Positions 1,124 to 18,159 of a DNA stretch of 32,656 nt are shown here, piece by piece. The notes beneath the pieces are model-generated. The model saw only the letters and a program-made list of their open reading frames with translations, had not been told where the DNA came from and did not search any database. Numbering within the stretch: position 1 is the first letter of the stretch; each line of letters opens with the position of its first letter. The stretch covers positions 1-32,656 of the forward strand of contig JAURNI010000025.1 of the NCBI GenBank assembly GCA_030830305.1, read 5' to 3'. The position numbers and the translations under genes were made by a program. The DNA comes from Alphaproteobacteria bacterium. GTDB taxonomy: Bacteria; Pseudomonadota; Alphaproteobacteria; Rickettsiales; Deianiraeaceae.

Positions 1124-1201
1124 TTTTTCCACTATGCTTGCTTGTGTTCTTTTGGAATATACTCAAAAAGTAAAAGCATTTCTACAAAGTTCATTAATAA
1201 T

Positions 1202-4200
1202 ATGGAAAAACCAAAATGGTGGGAAGTTAAAAAAAGGAAGATTTATAAGTCTCAACAAGAGGTTGATGAATTTGATGATATATCTTTAGATAATGAAGAA
1301 AATTTTACTGATGACAACACCAATGACAGTAATTCACAAACGGAAGAAAGTAGTGTGGAAACCGAAAACATAAATATTGATGATGACCTTGACGATTTAA
1401 CAGATATCTCCCATGATTACCTTGGTAAGGAAAATATTGATGAAAGCGGTAATATCAATAATGAGGATTTGTCACCTAAAAATTCTCCTGAAGGCTTGAA
1501 TAACAAACAAGAGACACATTCAGATTTATCAGAATTTGATTTAGGTGAGTTTGAAAAAATACCGAGTGATGTCAAAAATGAAAAAAATATACCGGCAAAA
1601 ATTGCAACGACCGTTTCCAAGCAATCAACTTTAAGTGAAGATTTAAAAATTGAAGAATTTGATTTGGGCGAGGTAACTCTTAATAATGTTGATGTAAAAA
1701 ACTCGTTTGAAAATGGTGGAATTGTGAATGAAGAAATTCCTACAACTACACAATACGATGATAATCAACAAAAAAATGGACACAATCATAGTTTTGAACT
1801 TGGAGATTTTGACGATCTTCATAATGGTATAAGTAATGGAGATCACGAAAACGATATTTTTTCCGGAATAGAGAATGGCACAATGGAAAATAAAGAAGGT
1901 GAAAATCTTGTAAATGATGAAGATCTTGATCTACAACTTGATGATGAAGACGCAAATCTTGATGCTTTAGAAAGTACTAACAAAAAGGAAAGTACACACA
2001 AACCTACAAGTAGAGAAGTTGAAAAAATGTTATATGATGGCATTAAAGCAAAACCAAACTTCAGTGAACCTACCGATGAAGATACATTTGCGAAACATAA
2101 AACTAATTTGCGTGAGTATATAATTCATCATAAAACAAAAGTAATTATATTTTTGTCAGGCTTTGTTTCGTTGATGTTGTTGCTGTATATTGGCAATATT
2201 GGCATTACAACACACTCTTTACCAGATTTTTCAAATGATAGAATTAAAATTACCAAAGCAGATTCTGTAAATATTAAATATAGTCTTGGTGAGACTATGT
2301 CATTCAAAAATGCGAAGATGGAGTTTTTATTAAATGACGGGTCTGCGGTAAATATTGAGGGAGATTTTACAATTTCTGCGAGTATTTTTGCAATGATTTC
2401 AAAATCTATTACAAATGCGCATCTGAATATTAAGAAAGCAACCGTGACAGTTATTCAGGGAAAAAGTCAAAGGTCTATTCAAAGTATTATTATGCAGATA
2501 ATTGATACAGGTACATCTTTTGATGGTGTTTTTGCGGATATCAAACTTTTAGATACAAAAGTAAATATTTTAAATGAAGAAAATGTAGTAACGGATTCTT
2601 TTACATTTAGTGATTTTACATTCCAAAAAGTGCTGGAAAAAACTGTAGCAATTGGTATTGTTAAAATTAATGAACATAAAATTGATATAAGTTATACCGA
2701 TTACAACACAGATCCATCTATAAGAGTTTCACCTGCGGTGCAAAATAATAACTTTAATCTTTCGGTAAAATCTCATGTTTTTGAGTTTTCAATTATTGGA
2801 ATGAAGCAATCATACGGTACGGTTTCAAAAGAAAACAGAATTAATGGCGTTATGGAATTTGTGGTGAGAAATCCGTCGCAATTTGTTTCTTTGGTGTCTC
2901 ATTTAAAATCATTTCCAAAGTTCTTGATTAATCTTCCGCAATTTTCTGTTAAGGGTGATTTTGAGTATTCATCTCTTGGAAATCTTTTGAATATTCAAAA
3001 TGGAAAGATAAACTTTTTAAATTCTCTTGGTGATTTTGAACTGTCAACAACGGAGGCAAGTAAAAAGTACAAAGCAACTGTAAAATTTGATTCATTTTCC
3101 TTTGAACAAATTGCTAATTATGTTAGATCTTTTAATGTTGTAATGCAAGGTTCAGATCAAACTACAACGCAGTATGATGGTACAAAATATGAAGACGGCA
3201 TAAACTTATTTTCCCTTGTAGGTGACGGAAAAGAATTTGAACTTGAGCTTTTTACAAATCATGTAGCGTCTAATCAAAATATATACTTTTCTGATATTAA
3301 ATCTTCGATTAGTATCGATAATAATGAAGTAAAAATTAACTCGTTTAATATGAAATCCGGTGAAGAATTGGAATATAATATGAAAGGAAAATTTACAAAT
3401 TTAAACAAATATAATCCATATGGTATTTTTTCTTTTGCAATAAACGGTAAAACAAACACTGAAACTCAGAAAATTACACAAAGTATTGTGAACTTTTTTA
3501 CTCGTTTACCTATAAATAAACAGTTGGAAGGCCAGCAAACTGATATCACATTTGATATTATTCTTAAATCTTCTTCTATCATATTTCATAATATTTTACT
3601 CCGTGTTGAAAATATTATTTCGATAGATGGTAATATACAGTTTACTCAGAATTTTCCTTTGAAAGGGTCACTGGTGTTTTCAGAATTTAGAGATATTACA
3701 TTCAATGATGTTAATTTAAAGGATTTTAATCTTGAAGTCTTTCGCTTTAAACAAGGCAGTACTTTGTTTCAGGAAATAATACAAAACAAAAGCAAATATT
3801 CTGACTACCTATATTCATTTAATAATTCTATTATTTCAGGTAACATCATCAAAAACGCTACTATTGGAATAGTGGCACAAAATGGTAATATTCAAACACA
3901 AATTAATATAGATTCGGAAAAATACAAGCTATATAATAGCTCAATTATTGATGTTAGTGGTCAAAATCCTTCATTTAACATGAATACTATTTTAACAAAT
4001 ATTACAGATTTTAAGGAATTAAAAACAAACTTAAGTGAATTTTTCCAAAAACAATATATCTTCATTCCTTCGTTTGAAAAGTTTAATGGTTATATTAATT
4101 TAATTATAAAAGATTCCATCTTATTTGGACAAACTATTCCAATGTTTGTAATGCGTGGAATAATGAATGATGGTATTGTACAATTTCCGGAAAACAAATT

Positions 4201-4897
4201 CTCTGCAATAGAAAGTGATGTGCCGGTTATTTCAGGTAAGATTGGGGGTAAAATAGAACTATCAAGAAACATTCCGTTATTTAATTTACAATTATCATTT
4301 CTTAATATCCCAACAAGGGAGTTTCAGAAAATTCTGCCAATATCTTATGAATTTGATGGAACGGTATCGGGTGGAGGAGGATTTGTTTTTTCTGGATTAT
4401 CCTATGCAGAGTTTCTTAATTCTATACAAACAAAAGCAAAGTTTGTTTTACAAAAAACGAAAATTCCACGACTTAACCTAAACTTTCTTGCGCAGAATTT
4501 GCTTAAAACACATGGAAATAAACTTTTTGAACTTGATAAACAACACATTGAAGACAATTTGAATATAAACAACGAAACCGAATACAATGTAATATTCTCT
4601 ATTTCCGGTGGAAATAAAAAGTTTGTTATCGATTCATGTAATATTAAAACAGCTTATACCGGTGGTGTGTGTGCTGGAAATATCAGTGTTATGCAAAATG
4701 ACAATATTTTTGTTGAAATTGTTTCAAAATTTGCAATTCCGGCTTTGGATATTAATAACGACCTTAAAGATATTATGAAGCTTTATGTTTCGAATAAAAC
4801 AACATACGATTCCTCAAAACAAGAAAATGAATTCACGACGGATCTTGCGCAGGTATATCAATATATTAACTACCGCAGGGCAACTTTTGGAATATAG
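1202..4897 (+). CDS. Large AsmA/YhdP-like (DUF3971-type) membrane-anchored protein with an acidic cytoplasmic N-terminus
   Basis: ORF 1142-4897; likely start at ATG 1202 (MEKPKWWEVKKRK). Acidic Asn/Asp/Glu-rich N-terminus, one TM (KVIIFLSGFVSLMLLLYIGNIGI), then a long beta-rich repetitive region. Family call is by overall architecture. Confidence 0.6.
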   Translation: MEKPKWWEVKKRKIYKSQQEVDEFDDISLDNEENFTDDNTNDSNSQTEESSVETENINIDDDLDDLTDISHDYLGKENIDESGNINNEDLSPKNSPEGLNNKQETHSDLSEFDLGEFEKIPSDVKNEKNIPAKIATTVSKQSTLSEDLKIEEFDLGEVTLNNVDVKNSFENGGIVNEEIPTTTQYDDNQQKNGHNHSFELGDFDDLHNGISNGDHENDIFSGIENGTMENKEGENLVNDEDLDLQLDDEDANLDALESTNKKESTHKPTSREVEKMLYDGIKAKPNFSEPTDEDTFAKHKTNLREYIIHHKTKVIIFLSGFVSLMLLLYIGNIGITTHSLPDFSNDRIKITKADSVNIKYSLGETMSFKNAKMEFLLNDGSAVNIEGDFTISASIFAMISKSITNAHLNIKKATVTVIQGKSQRSIQSIIMQIIDTGTSFDGVFADIKLLDTKVNILNEENVVTDSFTFSDFTFQKVLEKTVAIGIVKINEHKIDISYTDYNTDPSIRVSPAVQNNNFNLSVKSHVFEFSIIGMKQSYGTVSKENRINGVMEFVVRNPSQFVSLVSHLKSFPKFLINLPQFSVKGDFEYSSLGNLLNIQNGKINFLNSLGDFELSTTEASKKYKATVKFDSFSFEQIANYVRSFNVVMQGSDQTTTQYDGTKYEDGINLFSLVGDGKEFELELFTNHVASNQNIYFSDIKSSISIDNNEVKINSFNMKSGEELEYNMKGKFTNLNKYNPYGIFSFAINGKTNTETQKITQSIVNFFTRLPINKQLEGQQTDITFDIILKSSSIIFHNILLRVENIISIDGNIQFTQNFPLKGSLVFSEFRDITFNDVNLKDFNLEVFRFKQGSTLFQEIIQNKSKYSDYLYSFNNSIISGNIIKNATIGIVAQNGNIQTQINIDSEKYKLYNSSIIDVSGQNPSFNMNTILTNITDFKELKTNLSEFFQKQYIFIPSFEKFNGYINLIIKDSILFGQTIPMFVMRGIMNDGIVQFPENKFSAIESDVPVISGKIGGKIELSRNIPLFNLQLSFLNIPTREFQKILPISYEFDGTVSGGGGFVFSGLSYAEFLNSIQTKAKFVLQKTKIPRLNLNFLAQNLLKTHGNKLFELDKQHIEDNLNINNETEYNVIFSISGGNKKFVIDSCNIKTAYTGGVCAGNISVMQNDNIFVEIVSKFAIPALDINNDLKDIMKLYVSNKTTYDSSKQENEFTTDLAQVYQYINYRRATFGI

Positions 4898-5364: not shown

Positions 5365-7874
5365 AATCTTACAGCCATATTCGTAACCGGTTTACAGAAT
5401 TTTTTTCAAGAAATGAACATGCTGTTGTACAATCTTCCCCTCTTGTGCCCGAGGACTCAACTCTTCTTTTTACAAATTCGGGAATGGTGCAATTTAAAGA
5501 TTACTTCGCCGGAAAACTGGAAAGCCCAAATTTAAGAGCCACAACCATACAAAAATGTGTACGTGCAGGCGGAAAACATAACGACCTTGACAATGTCGGT
5601 TACACAAATCGCCATCATACTTTTTTTGAAATGCTCGGAAATTTTTCTTTTGGGGACTATTTCAAAGAAGAAGCAATATTTTTTGCATGGAATTTTTTAA
5701 CGAAAGAACTTGGAATTGATAAATCAAAGCTGTATGTAACAGTCTATCATACAGATAATGAAGCCCACAAAATTTGGCAAAAACACATTGATGCAAGTAG
5801 AATTATTCGCATCAATACAAACGATAACTTTTGGCAGGTTGGAAATATTGGCCCGTGTGGCCCATGTTCTGAAATTTTTTATGATTACGGTGCAGATGTT
5901 TCCGGTGGTCTTCCAGGTTCGTCGGAGCAAGACGGCGCAAGGTTCACGGAAATTTGGAATTTGGTTTTCATGCAAAATTTTATTCATGAAGATGGCAGAA
6001 TTACAGACCTACCGAAAAAAAATATAGACACAGGTATGGGTTTGGAGAGGCTTGCCTCGGTTTTGGAAGGAACAGTGGATAACTACTCCACAAGTTTGTT
6101 CAAAGAATTAATTACAAGTATTAGTGATATTACAAGAATTGAGCCGTCAAAAAACTTATTTACAGCTGGTGGGAATATTTCGCTTTTTTCCCAAAACGAT
6201 ATTACTCTGCGTATTTTGGCAGATCATATCCGTTCCATTTCATTTTTAATTGCAGATGGTATACTTCCAAGTAATGAGGGCAGGGGGTATGTTCTTCGTA
6301 GAATTATTCGCCGTGCGTTGAAATCTGCGTATTTTGCGGGTGTGGATTTTTCATTTTTACCAAAACTTGCTGGGGAGTTGATTACTCAAATGGGGCAAAA
6401 TTATTCAGAATTGAATCAAGCAAGGGATTTGATTTTAAGTCAAGCTAAAAGTGAAGAGGAAAAATTTATGGAGCTTCTTCCGCGGGGTCTCAAAGTTTTA
6501 GAAAAAGAAATTAATGGTAATATTAAAAATGATGTGCTAAACGGTGTGTTTGCCTTCAAACTTTATGATACCTATGGGTTTCCGCTTGATATTACCCTTG
6601 AAATGGCAAAAAAATATGGTGTGAAAAAAATTGATGAAAAAGCATTTGATGAGGAAATGAACACTCAACAAGAACGCAGTAAAAAAAGTTGGAAGGGCAC
6701 TCATGAAGATGAAATTGAGGAGCTTAAAAAAGCTATTTCAATTTTACCAAAAACGAAATTTTTGGGTTACGAGCAAACAAAATGTACGGCAAAGGTTTTA
6801 TACTCCAAAAACGGTTATGCAGTTTTTGATAAAACTGTTTTTTATGCAGAGTCTGGTGGACAAGTTGCGGATACTGGATTTGCAACACATATTGATGTAC
6901 TTGATGTACAAAACATTGATGGACGATTTGTGCATAAAATGAGTGAAGATATTCCATTTAACGAAATTGATTTACAAGTTAATGAAAGTAGGCGTAGGAA
7001 AATTTCAGCAAACCACACGGCAACGCATTTACTTCATTATGTTTTAAGGGAAAAGTATGGGCAGGCACTGGTACAAAAGGGTTCTTTGGTTAAGGAAGAC
7101 GGTTTCCGTTTTGATTTCTCACACTCTAAGCTGCTTTCCTTACAGGAAATTCATGAGGTTGAACTGGCAGTGAATGAACTTATTGCAAAAAATTTATTAA
7201 CTCAAACAGAATTTTGTTCAAAGGAAGAAGCAACAACAAAAGGAGCAATGGCACTTTTTGGTGAAAAGTATGGCAGTACTGTGCGTGTTGTTTCTGCTGG
7301 AAAAAGTGTGGAATTATGTGGTGGTATTCATGTAAATCAAACTGGAGATATTGGATTTTTTAAAATTACAACACAAGAGGCAGTAGCCTCCGGTGTTCGA
7401 AGAATTGAAGCAAAAACAGGGGTTGAAGCGGTTAAGTTTGTTCAGGATTTTGAAGTTCAAACCGCAGAAATTAAAACCAAATTTAAAATGTCCTCTTCTG
7501 TAATGGATTTTATTCTTAACAAAGATGAAGAGCTAAAAAAACTCAAGCAAGAAATGCAAAGTTTGAATTTAAAAGTTGCGGTTTCTGTTGAGCCATTGAA
7601 ATGCAAAATTTTATACAAGGAAGCAATATTTAAAATTTTAGAAAACTTTTCGGGGGATATTCGCCAAGTTGCAAATTCTTTAAATGGAGCAATTAAGATT
7701 GTTTTTAATCAAAAAGAGGAAAGTTTTAATTTATGTGTGCTTGCAGAAAAAAATGCTAAGGAAATTGCAATGGAACTGCAACGCATACTTGGACTTGAAA
7801 TGAAGTTTGGTGGTAATGATACATTTGTTTCCGGTGGTGGAAATGGTATTGTTGATGTGAAGAAATTTAAATAA
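5361..7874 (+). CDS. alaS: Alanine--tRNA ligase
   Basis: 837 aa; RAGGKHNDLDNVGYTNRHHTFFEMLGNFSFGDYFK, ILADHIRSISFLIADGILPSNEGRGYVLRRIIRRA, HTATHLLHYVLR, CGGIHV. Confidence 0.97.
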   Translation: MKSYSHIRNRFTEFFSRNEHAVVQSSPLVPEDSTLLFTNSGMVQFKDYFAGKLESPNLRATTIQKCVRAGGKHNDLDNVGYTNRHHTFFEMLGNFSFGDYFKEEAIFFAWNFLTKELGIDKSKLYVTVYHTDNEAHKIWQKHIDASRIIRINTNDNFWQVGNIGPCGPCSEIFYDYGADVSGGLPGSSEQDGARFTEIWNLVFMQNFIHEDGRITDLPKKNIDTGMGLERLASVLEGTVDNYSTSLFKELITSISDITRIEPSKNLFTAGGNISLFSQNDITLRILADHIRSISFLIADGILPSNEGRGYVLRRIIRRALKSAYFAGVDFSFLPKLAGELITQMGQNYSELNQARDLILSQAKSEEEKFMELLPRGLKVLEKEINGNIKNDVLNGVFAFKLYDTYGFPLDITLEMAKKYGVKKIDEKAFDEEMNTQQERSKKSWKGTHEDEIEELKKAISILPKTKFLGYEQTKCTAKVLYSKNGYAVFDKTVFYAESGGQVADTGFATHIDVLDVQNIDGRFVHKMSEDIPFNEIDLQVNESRRRKISANHTATHLLHYVLREKYGQALVQKGSLVKEDGFRFDFSHSKLLSLQEIHEVELAVNELIAKNLLTQTEFCSKEEATTKGAMALFGEKYGSTVRVVSAGKSVELCGGIHVNQTGDIGFFKITTQEAVASGVRRIEAKTGVEAVKFVQDFEVQTAEIKTKFKMSSSVMDFILNKDEELKKLKQEMQSLNLKVAVSVEPLKCKILYKEAIFKILENFSGDIRQVANSLNGAIKIVFNQKEESFNLCVLAEKNAKEIAMELQRILGLEMKFGGNDTFVSGGGNGIVDVKKFK

Positions 7875-8853
7875 ACATTTTCAATATCTTATAAAATGCT
7901 GTAATTATATATAAGTGAATAATGTATATTTTTAAGCTGTTTTTTCCAAGAAATTCTAACAATTTTGGTTTAAATTTATATTTTTGTATTGTATTTAAAA
8001 TAAGTAAAAAAGCAGATATATAAATACATAAAAACAAAATTGTTGGTGGGTATTTTGACAAATCAAAAAATAATATGATTGCAATAAGGGGATTTGAACT
8101 GCTTTCTAATGGGTTTTGATTGAAAAACGGTATATCAAAAAACCTTAATGTAATTCCTAAAAATAATAAAGTGCATGAAATAACGGTTATTTTGTGTGTA
8201 TTAATTTCTTTTGTGATAGAATAAAACTGCCCAAGAAAAAAACCTACTCCAATAACTCCGCACCACGAAAGAATGGGAAATGTGGTACGGATCATGATTT
8301 TTTCATTAAATAACCAAAAAATTGTTTTTTCATGAAGAATGGCAAATAAAAATGATGGAAAAAACTGCCGAACTATATTTCCGTAAATGTTAAGAGTAGC
8401 ATCAAGAAGTATTAGTATTAAAGAAAAGAGAAGAATTTGCTTTGGTGTCAGCCTTCCAACTAAAAATGAAAGTAAAATTAAACCGCAGCCGATTGCAAAA
8501 ATTACCTGTAAGAAAATTTTATACGGTATAATGGAAAAGCTCCAACCAAATGTTATAATGGTTAACTCAAGGAATATCAAAATAAATCCTCTTTTGAAAA
8601 GATGTTTTCTGAAGGTTTTAATATCATAATATGATTGACGAAAATAAACCGACATTCCACATAAAATAATAAAACCTGGTGCGCACAGGTGCGAAAGTGT
8701 TCGTATAATAAGAAAAAATAAGTTTATATTTTCAATATTTTGAATTGGTGATGTTATAACTGGAATAAAAGGTGAAAGGTGTATAATGTGTTCAATAATC
8801 ATTATTAAAATTACCAGTCCTCTGGTGATATCAATTGAAGATACCCTATTCAT
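7867..8853 (-). CDS. DUF1624 / heparan-alpha-glucosaminide N-acetyltransferase-like integral membrane protein
   Basis: 328 aa, many TM segments; N-terminus MNRVSSIDITRGLVILIMIIEH matches the family pattern (R..siDx.RGl.i..Mi.vH). Confidence 0.75.
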   Translation of the reverse strand: MNRVSSIDITRGLVILIMIIEHIIHLSPFIPVITSPIQNIENINLFFLIIRTLSHLCAPGFIILCGMSVYFRQSYYDIKTFRKHLFKRGFILIFLELTIITFGWSFSIIPYKIFLQVIFAIGCGLILLSFLVGRLTPKQILLFSLILILLDATLNIYGNIVRQFFPSFLFAILHEKTIFWLFNEKIMIRTTFPILSWCGVIGVGFFLGQFYSITKEINTHKITVISCTLLFLGITLRFFDIPFFNQNPLESSSNPLIAIILFFDLSKYPPTILFLCIYISAFLLILNTIQKYKFKPKLLEFLGKNSLKIYIIHLYIITAFYKILKMFI

Positions 8854-8919: not shown

Positions 8920-9483
8920 TTATAATATTCCCTTTACACCCCACATATTATGTTGAGGACTTGTCATATTCATCATTCCTGCACCCATACCGCCAAATGT
9001 TTCGGAACCGCTTTCCATTTGAAACCATGGGGAATCATTATTTGCGTAAGGGTCTTCGTATTGAGTATTCCACCAGAAACTGTCTGTCATTCTTTCTCTA
9101 AGAATGTTATCATCATTCGGTTTCATTCTGTTTGAATAGAACGGTCTTGGGAAGTCTTTTACAAGCCAACCTTCACCTTGCATTTGGCTTAAATACATTT
9201 GGCAATACCTGTTACCCAACTTCCACGCGTTGGCGTAAGTTTTGATGTTCATGTATTCTGTTTTAATTTGTGCTTTATTTTTCATTCTTACAACATCGTT
9301 ACCATAAACTGTAAGCCCTGTATCACAGCCGTCTTTAAAACCCATTCTGTAAAGTGGTGAACCATCTGTTGGTATTTTTGGGTAGAATAATGGTGTTCCA
9401 AGGCTGCATGCTGTGAGTAAATCCGAAAAACATACAAGCCAAACAAAAAGAATGGCGTGCTTTATGATGCCCTTCTTTGCCAT
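8920..9483 (-). CDS. Small lipoprotein, tandem paralog A, with Gly/Met-rich C-terminal extension
   Basis: Signal plus lipobox LLTAC; GSPLYRMGFKDGCDTG...YANAWKLGNRYCQMYL shared with four neighbours; extra ~80 aa C-terminal tail. Confidence 0.8.
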   Translation of the reverse strand: MAKKGIIKHAILFVWLVCFSDLLTACSLGTPLFYPKIPTDGSPLYRMGFKDGCDTGLTVYGNDVVRMKNKAQIKTEYMNIKTYANAWKLGNRYCQMYLSQMQGEGWLVKDFPRPFYSNRMKPNDDNILRERMTDSFWWNTQYEDPYANNDSPWFQMESGSETFGGMGAGMMNMTSPQHNMWGVKGIL

Positions 9484-9764
9484 GATGCAATGTAAAATCT
9501 ACAATGGTTAAACGCCATATGCCACGCTTCGTTATAAGCGTCATCTTCAATAAAATCCGGTTTAAATGTAAAAGAGTTAATCCATTTGTAGTGTGTGTCT
9601 CCTGAAACTTTGAACCCTGTTTGGCAACCGTCTCTCCAACCCATTCTGAATGTTGGTGTTCCTTCGGGAGCGAAGTCTTGAAATCCACGAGCATAGTTAA
9701 GCGGTCTATAAAACCCTGCACAAGAACACAAAAACATAAACCCTAATGCAAATATTATTTTCAT
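9462..9764 (-). CDS. Small lipoprotein, tandem paralog B
   Basis: Lipobox FLCSC; GTPTFRMGWRDGCQTG...YNEAWHMAFNHCRFYI. Confidence 0.8.
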   Translation of the reverse strand: MKIIFALGFMFLCSCAGFYRPLNYARGFQDFAPEGTPTFRMGWRDGCQTGFKVSGDTHYKWINSFTFKPDFIEDDAYNEAWHMAFNHCRFYIASWQRRAS

Positions 9765-9765
9765 A

Positions 9766-10098
9766 TTAAATCACCCTTTTTCCATACCAGTTAAAGTTAT
9801 GTTGTAGTAAATATGATGTACAGTATCTATAAGCATCATTCCAAGCAAGGCTATATTCCGTACTGCTAATCGTCAACTCTTCATTTTTCGTGAACTCAAA
9901 AAAATTTTTATAAAGATGATTCGCTGTTGCTCCACCGGCGGTTTCACAACCATCTTGCCAACCTTTGATATACTCCGGTGAGTAATCCATTTCCCCGTTT
10001 GGTTTTGCAGGAGGGTGATCAAACATCCATCTTTTCCATATTGGAACATTTTTGTCACATGCTGCAAAAAGCAAAAATAATAAAATAAAGTATTTCAT
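9766..10098 (-). CDS. Small lipoprotein, tandem paralog C
   Basis: Lipobox LFAAC with Asp at +2; YSPEYIKGWQDGCETA...YSLAWNDAYRYCTSYL. Confidence 0.8.
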   Translation of the reverse strand: MKYFILLFLLFAACDKNVPIWKRWMFDHPPAKPNGEMDYSPEYIKGWQDGCETAGGATANHLYKNFFEFTKNEELTISSTEYSLAWNDAYRYCTSYLLQHNFNWYGKRVI

Positions 10099-10418
10099 AC
10101 AGTGTTCATTAACAAAGAAAACATATGATAAACGCAGTAGTTGTAAGCATCATTCCATGCGGTTTTGTATCTTTCATTTTCATTCCAAAGTTGCCCATTA
10201 ATGTAGTATCTGTGAGTTCCGGTCATTAAATTTGCTGTTGTATTTACCCCGGAAAGTCCAGATTCACACCCGTGTTGCCAACCAAGTCTGAATTGCGGTG
10301 TTCCAGGTGGCGGATTAATATTTAACGAAAAAGGCCTTGTTGGTGTAATATACCTACCATTCAAAACTGTGCAGGAATTCATTAAACCCAAAATTAACAT
10401 AAATCTTATAAAAAACAT
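10095..10418 (-). CDS. Small lipoprotein, tandem paralog D
   Basis: Lipobox LMNSC; GTPQFRLGWQHGCESG...YKTAWNDAYNYCVYHM; 4-nt overlap with C. Confidence 0.8.
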   Translation of the reverse strand: MFFIRFMLILGLMNSCTVLNGRYITPTRPFSLNINPPPGTPQFRLGWQHGCESGLSGVNTTANLMTGTHRYYINGQLWNENERYKTAWNDAYNYCVYHMFSLLMNTV

Positions 10419-10424
10419 AATACA

Positions 10425-10757
10425 TTAAAAACCAATAACAGAGTTGGCTGCCGTTCCACAATAGCTAAAACCATCACCATAACCTTTTTTATATTGTGCA
10501 TCGGCAAGTGCTCTGTCTGAATTATAATATTGTCCATATCCTGTTGCTCTTATTTCATGAAGCCTATGTGCACCGTATCCGCTTAAACCCATGCCGTCGT
10601 TGCATCCGCCACGAAAACCCGAACTGTATGAGTTATCATCTTGCGGAATATTTTTTTTAAAATGCCAGATTCGTGGAGTGTACCATTTCCATCTACCGTC
10701 CTCTCCGGTAAGACTGCATGCTGAAAGCAATATTATTATTAATAAAATTTTTATCAT
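10425..10757 (-). CDS. Small lipoprotein, tandem paralog E (promoter-proximal, most divergent)
   Basis: Lipobox LLSAC; YSSGFRGGCNDGMG...YKKGYGDGFSYCGTA. Confidence 0.8.
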   Translation of the reverse strand: MIKILLIIILLSACSLTGEDGRWKWYTPRIWHFKKNIPQDDNSYSSGFRGGCNDGMGLSGYGAHRLHEIRATGYGQYYNSDRALADAQYKKGYGDGFSYCGTAANSVIGF

Positions 10758-10779: not shown

Positions 10780-10808
10780 ATTATAGCACATTTTTTTGGC
10801 TGTGTCAA
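10780..10808 (-). promoter_or_regulatory. Perfect sigma70-type promoter for the lipoprotein operon
   Basis: Minus strand: TTGACA (10808-10803), 17-nt spacer CAGCCAAAAAAATGTGC, TATAAT (10785-10780); first ATG at 10757. Confidence 0.85.
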
Positions 10809-11701: not shown

Positions 11702-12094
11702 TTATATGAATATTTTATGACGAATGTATTCTGATAGGGTATAAAACTTATGTTTGCGTTGTTCAGATTTCAGCAAAATGATGTCGTTTTCTGTGAAGCA
11801 TATGACGACTCTTTTGGTAATTTGTAATTGAGGTCTTCCGTATTTTTTGGTGTTTATTGTGTGTTCCTGTGGTTTTTCTTTGGTTTTTGTTGAAGTGGTG
11901 GTTTTGTTAAATTTTGCTTTTTCTTGTTGAAATTGCTGGTATTCTTTTAGGAGTTCTTCTCTTTGTTTGTTTAATTGTTCTTCTTTTTCTTGAATTGCTT
12001 CGTACTTTTCGTTGGCGTCTTTTGCAGTTTCTTGAATGCTTTTTTTTAAATCTTTGAGCTGTTTTTCTTTGGTTTCGTATGTTTCGTGTGTCAT
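11702..12094 (-). CDS. Coiled-coil protein with C-terminal ribbon-helix-helix-like domain (MobC-like?)
   Basis: 130 aa; charged heptad-like N-terminal ~70 aa, then KRVVICFTENDIILLKSEQRKHKFYTLSEYIRHKIF, resembling RHH DNA-binding domains of MobC/relaxosome-type proteins. Weak homology call. Confidence 0.5.
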   Translation of the reverse strand: MTHETYETKEKQLKDLKKSIQETAKDANEKYEAIQEKEEQLNKQREELLKEYQQFQQEKAKFNKTTTSTKTKEKPQEHTINTKKYGRPQLQITKRVVICFTENDIILLKSEQRKHKFYTLSEYIRHKIFI

Positions 12095-15797: not shown

Positions 15798-16762
15798 ATG
15801 AAATAATAAAACTTCAGAATACATTCTATCCAACACCATTGCTTGAAATTCAAATAATTTATAAAGAAAAAAAGTATATAATTTATGGTAAATATGAGGC
15901 TATCGGTTTCTCAGGATCTATAAAAGGAAGAATGATTCTTCATGCAATAAAAAAAGCTTACGAAAATGGCATGCTTAAAAAAGGTGATACTATTATCGAA
16001 GTAACATCCGGTAATACCGGAATTGCTATTGCAACAATCGGAGCAAAATTAGGACATCCCGTGGAAATTATTATGCCTGATTGGCTAAGCCCCGAAAGAT
16101 ATACAATGATGGAAATCCTCGGTGCAAAAATCACAAAAGTTTCAAGGTGTAACGGTGGCTTTTTCAAGTCTCTTGAAATTGCAAAAGAAAGGGCATTAAA
16201 AGGAGGTTTTTATTTTATGCAATTTGAGAACAAATACAATACCGATGCTCATTACCAAACAACCGCACCTGAAATATTTTCCGTTCTTAGAGAAAAGAAT
16301 AAATCTTTACCATCAGCATTTATTGCAGGAATGGGTAGTGGTGGAACGGTGATGGGTGTGAAACAATATTGTGTTGAAAATAATATTCAATGTTCATGCA
16401 ATCCGCTTGAACCTGCAAGTTCACCGATTTTAACAGGTGAAGGTGGAAAACTTCATAAAATTCAAGGAATTAACGATAACTTTATTCCAAAAATATTTGA
16501 TATTTCATTTGTTGATGAACCGGTATCTGTGGAAGATGACCATGCAATTTTTGTTGCTCAAGAAATTAACAAAAAAGGTTTTTCTGTTGGTATTTCAAGT
16601 GGAGCAAATTTATTTGGTACAGTCAAAGTTTTAGAAAAAAACCAAAAAGAAATTGGTGTAACAATCCTTTGTGATTCCTCCTTATTATACCTTTCAACAG
16701 ACATTACCAAGGTAATCGACCCAATACCAAATTTTGAAATTATCTCAATTAATCCTGTTTAA
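15794..16762 (+). CDS. Cysteine synthase / PLP-dependent beta-replacing enzyme family
   Basis: 322 aa; GFSGSIKGR (catalytic-Lys region), EVTSGNTGIAIA, GMGSGGTVMGVKQY, HKIQGINDNFIPKIFD, GISSGANLFG. Confidence 0.8.
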   Translation: MNEIIKLQNTFYPTPLLEIQIIYKEKKYIIYGKYEAIGFSGSIKGRMILHAIKKAYENGMLKKGDTIIEVTSGNTGIAIATIGAKLGHPVEIIMPDWLSPERYTMMEILGAKITKVSRCNGGFFKSLEIAKERALKGGFYFMQFENKYNTDAHYQTTAPEIFSVLREKNKSLPSAFIAGMGSGGTVMGVKQYCVENNIQCSCNPLEPASSPILTGEGGKLHKIQGINDNFIPKIFDISFVDEPVSVEDDHAIFVAQEINKKGFSVGISSGANLFGTVKVLEKNQKEIGVTILCDSSLLYLSTDITKVIDPIPNFEIISINPV

Positions 16763-18159
16763 GAACTTGCTTTCACAGTTGCTGCAATTTTTTGAACACA
16801 TTCCTCATATTCTTTTTCAGGAATTGAGTCATATACTACTCCTGCACCAACTTGGGTATAAAGCATTCCGTTTTGTATTAAACTTGAACGAAGAACTATA
16901 CATGTTTGTAAAATACCGGAAGAGATATACCCAACTGTACCTGCGTAAAAATCTCTGCTAACGGTTTCAAGTTCAGAAATTATCTGCATTGCACGAATTT
17001 TTGGTGCACCGGAAAGCGTTCCTGCGGGCAAACCTGATTTTAAAACATCAACCATGGAGACGCTGTTGCTTTTTTTACCCTTAACCGTTGAACTTATGTG
17101 CATAACATGTGAATATTTTTCAATTTCCATTTGTTTTTCAACATAAACCTCGCTACCTACTCTGCCGACATCATTTCTACCAAGGTCAAGCAACATTAAG
17201 TGCTCTGCAATTTCTTTTTGATTCCCAAGCAGAGCTTTTGCATTTTCCTCATCTTCTTCTTCGTTTATACCTCTTTTAATTGTTCCAGCAAGTGGGCGAA
17301 GTGTAATTTCATTATTTTTACAGTTTATAAGAATTTCCGGGCTTGCTCCGATTAAATTAAATCTTTCTCCATTTTCAATGGTAGAAAAATAGAACATATA
17401 AGGTGAAGGGTTTATTTCTTTTAGATTTTGGTAAAAATCCAGAGGATGCTTTGTGTAAGTTTTATAAAATCTAATAGAAGGTACAATTTGGAAAATATCA
17501 CCTTTTTTAATATATTCAATAGATTTTTCAACCATTTTACAGTAGTCTTCTTTTGTGGTATTAGAATAAAACCCCACATTTTCATGAAAATGTGGGGTTT
17601 GATGTTTTGTGTTTTCAAGTGGTATGTGCGAAACCTGCTCCTTAATTGCATTTTTAATGAACGTATAAATTTCTTCAATATTATGCGTTTCACCTTCATT
17701 GTAAATTGATGCAATACTAACAACGCTGTTGTTGTTATCAATAATAATTAAATTTTTTGGAAGAAACATGAAGCCATCAGGAATTAGTTGTGAATTACCA
17801 CAGTTAATTGATGGTTCAATTTCTCTTACAGCATTATATGAAATATAACCAAATAATGCACCGACCATTGGGAAATCAGGATTTATTAAATACGAAATTT
17901 CTTTAATTATGTATTCTAAATTTTTTAGGGTTTGTGAACCGGATATTTCAAAGTGAGAATCAAATGCAAAAATTGAATATTGACCCCTTTTTTCTGAATG
18001 TACTGCTGATTCCAAAAAACAGAAAGTCCTGCCTTGTTTTTCAAGATGAGGAATTATCTTGCATGGAATTTCTTCAATAATGCATGGGAAGTCCTGATAT
18101 TTATAACTTATAGTTTTTACTTGAAATTGTTTGAAATTTAAAGATTCCATTTTATTCAA
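16759..18159 (-). CDS. trpE: Anthranilate synthase component I
   Basis: 466 aa; FLESAV (LLES-like feedback element), SNTTKEDYCKMVEKSIEYIKKGDIFQIV, NPSPYMFYF, LRPLAGTIKRG, LDLGRNDVGRV, LPAGTLSGAPKIRAMQII. Confidence 0.85.
   Translation of the reverse strand: MNKMESLNFKQFQVKTISYKYQDFPCIIEEIPCKIIPHLEKQGRTFCFLESAVHSEKRGQYSIFAFDSHFEISGSQTLKNLEYIIKEISYLINPDFPMVGALFGYISYNAVREIEPSINCGNSQLIPDGFMFLPKNLIIIDNNNSVVSIASIYNEGETHNIEEIYTFIKNAIKEQVSHIPLENTKHQTPHFHENVGFYSNTTKEDYCKMVEKSIEYIKKGDIFQIVPSIRFYKTYTKHPLDFYQNLKEINPSPYMFYFSTIENGERFNLIGASPEILINCKNNEITLRPLAGTIKRGINEEEDEENAKALLGNQKEIAEHLMLLDLGRNDVGRVGSEVYVEKQMEIEKYSHVMHISSTVKGKKSNSVSMVDVLKSGLPAGTLSGAPKIRAMQIISELETVSRDFYAGTVGYISSGILQTCIVLRSSLIQNGMLYTQVGAGVVYDSIPEKEYEECVQKIAATVKASS
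17569..17600. repeat. Perfect 32-bp palindrome within trpE
   Basis: aaaccccacattttcatgaaaatgtggggttt equals its own reverse complement; in-frame in TrpE as ..QTPHFHENVGF.. Confidence 0.95.

What the first reader, a model, noticed from the sequence alone, without database searches (positions are those of the whole stretch)
8920..10757. Five-gene tandem array of coupled paralogous small lipoproteins with a G[FW]xxGC...YC motif
Five consecutive minus-strand genes each have a lipobox and a short mature domain with the pattern [P/x]x[FY]xxG[FW]xxGCx[TSD][GA] ... YxxxWxxxxxYC (paralog E has Y-x-x-G-Y), giving two conserved cysteines besides the lipid Cys. Neighbours overlap by 4 or 22 nt or are 1-6 nt apart. 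C and D share near-identical DNA over the AWNDAY[RN]YC block (aagcatcattcca on the plus strand), consistent with tandem duplication. I do not recognise the family. Five diverged copies in an otherwise compact genome suggest a heteromeric envelope or secretion-associated complex, or a diversifying surface set.
Basis: partly seen in the sequence, partly recalled or inferred. Interest (0 to 1): 0.65.

Follow-up and report, generated by a model that had tools for sequence, protein, structure and literature searches.

The report
Conserved five-lipoprotein operon in Rickettsiales
Five small lipid-anchored proteins in this window form an ancient set of five different parts that many Rickettsiales carry together, that lineages able to import ATP and nucleotides from a host lack, and that matches no described protein family.

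Summary
The five minus-strand lipoprotein genes at 8920-10757 are real and homologous. They match no Pfam, NCBIfam, PDB-sequence or PDB-fold entry. The host is a Rickettsiales genome. They are not recent duplicates. In about 30 arrays across the order the unit is five genes. Leave-one-out profiles assign 125 of 140 genes to their own slot (chance 28). One array is rotated, one swaps two genes, one fuses slots 2 and 3, and one genome has scattered all five classes and kept them. Both mature-domain cysteines are present in 224 of 225 members; the exception lost both, so a disulfide is likely. AlphaFold gives a confident helical hairpin; slot 5 adds a disordered tail. Genes are under purifying selection where testable and tightly coupled; here they follow a perfect extended -10 sigma-70 promoter. 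Of 54 relatives, 27 carry the family and 22 carry the nucleotide translocase Tlc; one has both, but a tree gives only three independent contrasts. Single-copy homologues occur in other Alphaproteobacteria. Best reading: a five-part hetero-oligomeric envelope lipoprotein complex dispensed with in nucleotide-parasitic lineages. Physical assembly is inferred. The type IV secretion link, the 'diversifying surface set' and recent tandem duplication are not supported.

The parts
10425..10757 (-). Gene E = slot 1 lipoprotein, 110 aa; slot signature ..IP.(D/G)D(D/N)SYS.GF..GCN.. and Y..G..DG..YC
   Evidence: (slot-1 clade of 18 rows, 98/96)
10095..10418 (-). Gene D = slot 2 lipoprotein, 107 aa; PPPGTPQFRLGWQHGCESGL
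   Evidence: sister to slot 2 of G047 (46% identity)
9766..10098 (-). Gene C = slot 3 lipoprotein, 110 aa; GWQDGCETAGGATANHLYK..; AlphaFold helical hairpin pLDDT 89, C51 in helix 41-58 and C93 in helix 80-104
   Evidence: (slot-3 clade of 19 rows, 99/98)
9462..9764 (-). Gene B = slot 4 lipoprotein, 100 aa
   Evidence: 51% identical to slot 4 of G047
8920..9483 (-). Gene A = slot 5 lipoprotein, 187 aa: same hairpin (helices 43-60 and 81-103) plus an ~84-residue C-terminal tail predicted disordered (pLDDT mostly below 50)
   Evidence: 59% identical to slot 5 of G047 over 82 columns
10780..10808 (-). Perfect extended -10 sigma-70 promoter TTGACA-N17-TATAAT (12 of 12, TG before -10), 22 nt upstream of the ATG of gene E, between lpxA and the array
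   Evidence: no 12/12 in about 2,900 shuffled upstreams; the slot 1-3 array L094 of G040 has one too
7867..8853 (-). Possible accessory: HGSNAT_cat / acyltransferase-3 membrane protein directly downstream; an HGSNAT_cat protein also lies directly downstream of the sister array in G047
   Evidence: only 2 of about 30 arrays, so not an obligatory part

Best explanation
The array is a strongly promoted, translationally coupled operon for five non-redundant subunits of one envelope assembly. Shown: each protein is a predicted lipoprotein with a helical-hairpin domain; its two cysteines are conserved or lost together, so they probably form a disulfide between helices; five distinct orthologous slots are inherited as a set across the Rickettsiales and persist when the operon is rotated, partly fused or scattered. 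Inferred: after lipidation the five sit on the periplasmic or outer face of the envelope and assemble in fixed ratio into a hetero-oligomer (a pseudo-fivefold ring is the simplest geometry), with the slot-5 tail reaching a partner such as peptidoglycan or an outer-membrane protein. Inferred: the assembly serves cells that make their own nucleotides and face an exterior, and it is dispensable once a lineage imports nucleotides from a host cell, which would explain its absence where Tlc is present. The window carries a second, type-2 copy of the cassette; the genome's native copy is on contig C55.
For: Unit of five: arrays of five genes in order in 27 of 30 loci laid out, one of four cut by a contig end, one of three, and one with two slots merged in one ORF; among relatives at least 90% complete the counts are 0, 1, 5, 10 or 13, besides the window's own 8, where the second array meets a contig end. 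Slot identity: 125/140 leave-one-out. Set retained when order changes: L097 is a 5-1-2-3-4 rotation and L082 swaps slots 4 and 5; G011 scatters six genes covering all five slot classes. Rosetta-stone fusion of slots 2 and 3 in G048 with a single lipid anchor (L076:8898-9584). Cys pair 224/225 with one double loss. Structure. Purifying selection dN/dS 0.11-0.24 for four slots, G002 versus G003. Median spacing 3 nt, 88 of 97 gaps at most 20 nt. Promoter. Stand-alone: no recurrent neighbour beyond a few housekeeping genes. Tlc: 26 family+/Tlc-, 21 family-/Tlc+, 1 both (a remote Tlc hit of 69.5 bits), 6 neither; raw Fisher p 2e-8, including a split inside the window's own family f1. Tlc as marker of nucleotide dependence: PMC10847448. 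An Athabascaceae MAG, UBA6187, from a basal family inferred not to be intracellular, has an array.
Against: The phylogeny-corrected Tlc anticorrelation rests on three contrasts only, all in the predicted direction, so it cannot reach significance. Single-copy members in other lineages show that the fold can work alone. Asp at +2 of the mature C protein would mean inner-membrane retention by the E. coli Lol rule. In G007 slot 1 was not found and slot 4 is doubled. One array (L094) has only slots 1-3, and L098 is too diverged for its slots to be assigned cleanly. dN/dS rests on one pair of genomes and short genes.
Confidence: 0.55

Rival explanations
1. Five lipoproteins of one fold that work separately, each with its own ligand or partner (for example envelope homeostasis, scavenging or adhesion), kept together only for co-regulation.
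For: Single-copy homologues work alone in other Alphaproteobacteria and in other Rickettsiales; in G007 and G011 the genes are scattered.
Against: The unit of five, retention of all five classes in G011 after dispersal, slot 2-3 fusion and near-zero spacing fit interdependence better.
Confidence: 0.22
2. VirB7-like accessory lipoproteins of the Rickettsiales type IV secretion system, one for each of its VirB6 paralogues.
For: Rickettsiales carry several VirB6 paralogues (PMC2653234 and PMC7648143, abstracts); VirB7 is a small lipoprotein; the PDB profile search lists the lipoprotein TrwH at E 0.44.
Against: VirB6 is found in 51 of 54 relatives whether or not they carry the lipoproteins; arrays never lie in a recurrent neighbourhood; the TrwH match covers only the N-terminal signal peptide and lipobox stretch of the profile (positions 8-39).
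Confidence: 0.08
3. A diversifying surface or antigen-like set produced by recent tandem duplication.
For: Tandem paralogues and high divergence between slots.
Against: Slots are orthologous across families, dN/dS 0.11-0.24, no gene conversion signal (longest shared DNA between C and D 14 nt).
Confidence: 0.04
4. A horizontally spread second cassette (type 2) acting as a strain-specific envelope or competition module alongside the native array.
For: The type-2 clade (window, G047, L089, L092, L094) is supported 100/100 and four of its five hosts also carry another array; it was not found in the three same-genus genomes, although the window contig is native by gyrB.
Against: Same-genus genomes are incomplete; elevated GC3 is shared by the native arrays, so composition does not show transfer; slot logic is the same as in type 1.
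Confidence: 0.11

Closest known systems
Unnamed single-copy lipoprotein of other Alphaproteobacteria and of one family outside the class (f199; organism names hidden by the tool)
   Same: Lipobox, GY.DGC ... Y..GW..G...C, one conserved Cys pair; profile-profile probability 98%, E 3e-14 to 7e-14
   Different: Usually one gene per genome with varied neighbours; no five-slot set (one genome, G166, has its own six-gene expansion)
DUF2799 / E. coli YfiL (PF10973)
   Same: Small lipoproteins with a G..DG..G ... Y..G...G...YC pattern
   Different: No Pfam match from any member tested; hhalign probability 2% (Rickettsiales set) and 34% over 14 columns (alphaproteobacterial set); cysteine positions differ; single genes
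RvhB6a-e, the tandem VirB6 paralogues of Rickettsiales T4SS (PMC2653234, PMC7648143)
   Same: Order-wide tandem set of ancient paralogues (architecture only)
   Different: Polytopic membrane proteins of a T4SS; unrelated sequence; present whether or not the lipoproteins are
Alvin_2107 family globule sulfur oxidation protein (NF049856)
   Same: Shares a short GY..G motif with single-copy homologues (best E 2.5e-5, below the curated cut-off)
   Different: Match of about 18 residues, score 24.6 against a cut-off of 60; no match from the window's own proteins

Membership tests
Alphaproteobacterial GxxDGC...YxxGWxxGxxxC single-copy lipoprotein (unnamed) | Profile-level sequence homology over the mature domain | tested here: met
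   hhalign 98% both ways; genome search hits E 1e-5 to 1e-15 in other Alphaproteobacteria
Alphaproteobacterial GxxDGC...YxxGWxxGxxxC single-copy lipoprotein (unnamed) | Lipobox plus one conserved mature Cys pair | tested here: met
   both Cys in 224 of 225 scorable members; lipobox-like Cys in all five window proteins by reading
DUF2799 (PF10973, YfiL) | Match to the Pfam model | tested here: not met
   no match among the window proteins at E up to 10 or 113 members at E up to 1
DUF2799 (PF10973, YfiL) | Profile-profile homology | tested here: not met
   2% and 34% probability over 14-15 columns
VirB7 / T4SS accessory lipoprotein | Encoded with T4SS genes | tested here: not met
   no recurrent neighbour in 30 loci; neighbour proteins were clustered, not all named
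VirB7 / T4SS accessory lipoprotein | Phyletic co-occurrence specific to T4SS carriers | tested here: not met
   VirB6 in 51 of 54 relatives regardless
VirB7 / T4SS accessory lipoprotein | Contact with the VirB9/VirB10 core | not testable with these tools
   needs multimer prediction or pull-down
Hetero-oligomeric lipoprotein complex (as a way of working) | Non-redundant subunits inherited as a set | tested here: met
Hetero-oligomeric lipoprotein complex (as a way of working) | Physical association of the subunits | not testable with these tools
   only indirect: slot 2-3 fusion in G048

The most novel reading that the evidence does not exclude
An unrecognised envelope machine of the Rickettsiales: a pseudo-fivefold ring or tether built from five ancient lipoprotein paralogues, present early in the order, duplicated as whole cassettes, and lost in each lineage that turned to importing host nucleotides, so that its loss marks the change to energy parasitism.
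Probability: 0.3. Interest if true: 0.82.

Novelty: new variant of a known kind. Interest (0 to 1): 0.62.

Why it matters
How Rickettsiales moved from living outside cells to living inside them is an open question, argued mostly from metabolism and known secretion systems. A five-part envelope module that is widespread in the order but missing from lineages with nucleotide translocases gives a concrete, testable component of the cell surface that is absent after that transition. It also defines a protein family that Pfam, NCBIfam and the PDB do not hold, with a clean natural design (one fold, five slots kept together) for studying how paralogues become locked into one assembly.

Tried and rejected
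Pfam and NCBIfam on the window proteins, on 113 members (Pfam) and on single-copy homologues: only lipobox-level or sub-threshold matches. PDB by profile and by fold, viral folds: nothing. Viral contigs and plasmids: no relative, so no sign of a phage or plasmid origin. DUF2799/YfiL as a parent family: rejected. VirB6/T4SS link: uninformative because T4SS genes are nearly universal. Contig contamination: rejected, gyrB on the contig is single-copy and 84-86% identical to same-genus genomes. Horizontal transfer from base composition: the array has GC3 0.33 against 0.20-0.27 for neighbouring genes, but the native arrays are raised too. High expression from codon choice: mixed (genes A and B and two of three C55 genes are high, gene C average), so left as a hint. 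Empty site in same-genus genomes: flanking genes are rearranged, so no clean empty site. Papers: a search for such a cluster found none, and the two Rickettsiales evolution papers (PMC9352585, PMC10847448) do not mention lipoproteins (counts).

Full report
OBSERVATION. In reading order E, D, C, B, A they are spaced +6, -4, +1 and -22 nt. Each protein has a signal peptide, a lipobox-like Cys, then GxxxGC and Y...YC. Using B as query finds three of the other four and a second set on contig C55 of the same 1.18 Mb genome; a profile of all five finds the whole array and three genes on C55 before the contig ends.

WHOSE GENOME. A pattern scan with slot-3 orthologues returned named MAGs, nine of the 23 loci recorded as Rickettsiales and the others as Alphaproteobacteria or Proteobacteria; many are the same contigs as relatives that the genome search places in the window's own order. 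gyrB on the window contig is single-copy and 84-86% identical to same-genus genomes, so the contig is native.

THE UNIT IS FIVE. Among 54 relatives, 27 carry the family. The better genomes hold 0, 1, 5, 10 or 13 copies; the window's own genome holds 8 because its second array is cut by a contig end. Of 30 loci laid out, 27 have five genes (in L102 the first is displaced), L076 has five domains in four ORFs, L099 is cut, and L094 has three. A profile for each slot, built without the tested genome, assigns 125 of 140 genes to their own slot (chance 28). The exceptions are informative: L097 is an exact rotation (5-1-2-3-4), L082 swaps slots 4 and 5, and in G048 slots 2 and 3 are fused in one ORF with one lipid anchor (L076:8898-9584). 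In G011 the genes lie on separate contigs, yet classify as slots 1, 2, 3, 4, 4 and 5 with a reference from the nearest arrays; G007 has 2, 3, 4, 4 and 5. With a reference from all arrays some of these calls are less certain. A tree of single domains gives supported clades for slot 1 (18 rows, 98/96) and slot 3 (19 rows, 99/98) although it has few columns. So the paralogues separated early in the order and are kept as a set; they are not recent duplicates. The 14-nt identity of C and D lies on conserved codons and is not evidence of duplication.

THE PROTEIN. Both mature cysteines are present in 224 of 225 scorable members and the one exception has lost both, as expected for a disulfide. AlphaFold on window C with 113 sequences gives pLDDT 89: C51 sits in helix 41-58 and C93 in helix 80-104. 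Window A has the same hairpin at high confidence and a tail of about 84 residues that is predicted disordered. Nothing similar was found in PDB by sequence or fold.

EXPRESSION AND SELECTION. A perfect TTGACA-N17-TATAAT with TG before the -10 lies at 10808-10780, 22 nt before gene E; shuffled upstream regions never reach 12 of 12, and L094 has a 12 of 12 site too, without the TG. Most other arrays have only ordinary matches. dN/dS between G002 and G003 is 0.11-0.24 for the four slots available. Median spacing over 97 gaps is 3 nt. Codon choice hints at high expression but is mixed.

TYPES OF ARRAY. Concatenated slots put the window array in a type-2 clade (100/100) with G047, L089, L092 and L094; the genome's own C55 array belongs with the same-genus arrays. 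Type 2 was not found in three incomplete same-genus genomes. It may be horizontally acquired, but its composition does not show this, since native arrays are also GC3-rich. No neighbour recurs across arrays except a few housekeeping genes; an HGSNAT-like acyltransferase follows the array in the window and in G047 only.

WIDER FAMILY. Single-copy homologues occur in scattered other Alphaproteobacteria (24 genomes outside the order in a sample of 289) and in one family outside the class. hhalign confirms homology at 98%. No library names them. DUF2799 (E. coli YfiL) looks alike by motif but fails the profile test.

WHO LACKS IT. The nucleotide translocase Tlc (PF03219) is found in 22 of 54 relatives. 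Set: 26 family without Tlc, 21 Tlc without family, 6 neither, and one both, G040, whose Tlc-like match is remote (69.5 bits). The split runs through the window's own family f1. The raw test gives p 2e-8, but a gyrB tree allows only three independent contrasts, all in the same direction, so this is a strong lead, not a proof. Castelli et al. (PMC10847448) treat tlc gain as the mark of nucleotide dependence, gained several times. VirB6 shows no such pattern.

HOW IT MOST LIKELY WORKS. Shown: five predicted lipoproteins with one hairpin fold, a linked cysteine pair, fixed slots, joint retention, tight coupling, and a consensus promoter in this genome. Inferred: lipidated subunits assemble in fixed ratio into a hetero-oligomer at the envelope, with the slot-5 tail contacting a partner; function matters to cells that do not live on host nucleotides. 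Independent action of the five is the main rival.

VERDICT. A real, ancient, undescribed five-part set. Function and assembly need experiments. I rate it a new variant of a known kind because complexes built from ancient paralogues are known in general, although this protein family and this five-slot lipoprotein set matched nothing described.

Noticed in passing
window 7867-8853 (-); L060:10972-12096 (+): An HGSNAT_cat membrane acyltransferase lies directly downstream of the array both here and in the sister array of G047, though the two genomes belong to different families.
   Followed up: partly
window 10780-10808 (-): Perfect 12/12 extended -10 sigma-70 promoter directly before the array, in a short lpxA-array gap.
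   Followed up: yes
54 relatives: Near-complete mutual exclusion between this lipoprotein family and the Tlc nucleotide translocase, also inside one family.
   Followed up: partly
L114:1350-3171 (-), genome G166: Independent tandem expansion (six members) of the same lipoprotein family in a non-Rickettsiales alphaproteobacterium.
   Followed up: no
L076:8898-9584 (-), genome G048: In-frame fusion of slots 2 and 3 in one ORF with a single lipidation site.
   Followed up: partly
L102:2804-9567: Slot 1 is separated from slots 2-5 by four genes and lies on the opposite strand; its near relative L100 has the intact array beside the same four genes, which suggests an inversion.
   Followed up: no
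window 11702-12094 (-): 130-aa coiled-coil protein with a possible ribbon-helix-helix-like C-terminus and the highest C-ending codon fraction (0.70) of 100 genes sampled from this genome.
   Followed up: no
window 1142-4897 (+): 1251-aa protein with an N-terminal acidic region and one transmembrane segment, AsmA-like to the eye, but no Pfam match up to E 0.1.
   Followed up: no
L215:7280-10612 (+), own genome contig C74: 1111-aa ORF that begins with a type IV prepilin-like signal (GVTIIEMTIVIALLSII), an unusually large pilin-like protein.
   Followed up: no
window 16759-18159 (-): Anthranilate synthase-like gene (reading of the ORF) in a 1.18 Mb Rickettsiales genome, which with the lack of Tlc suggests a Deianiraeaceae-like lifestyle; the family was not confirmed.
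   Followed up: no
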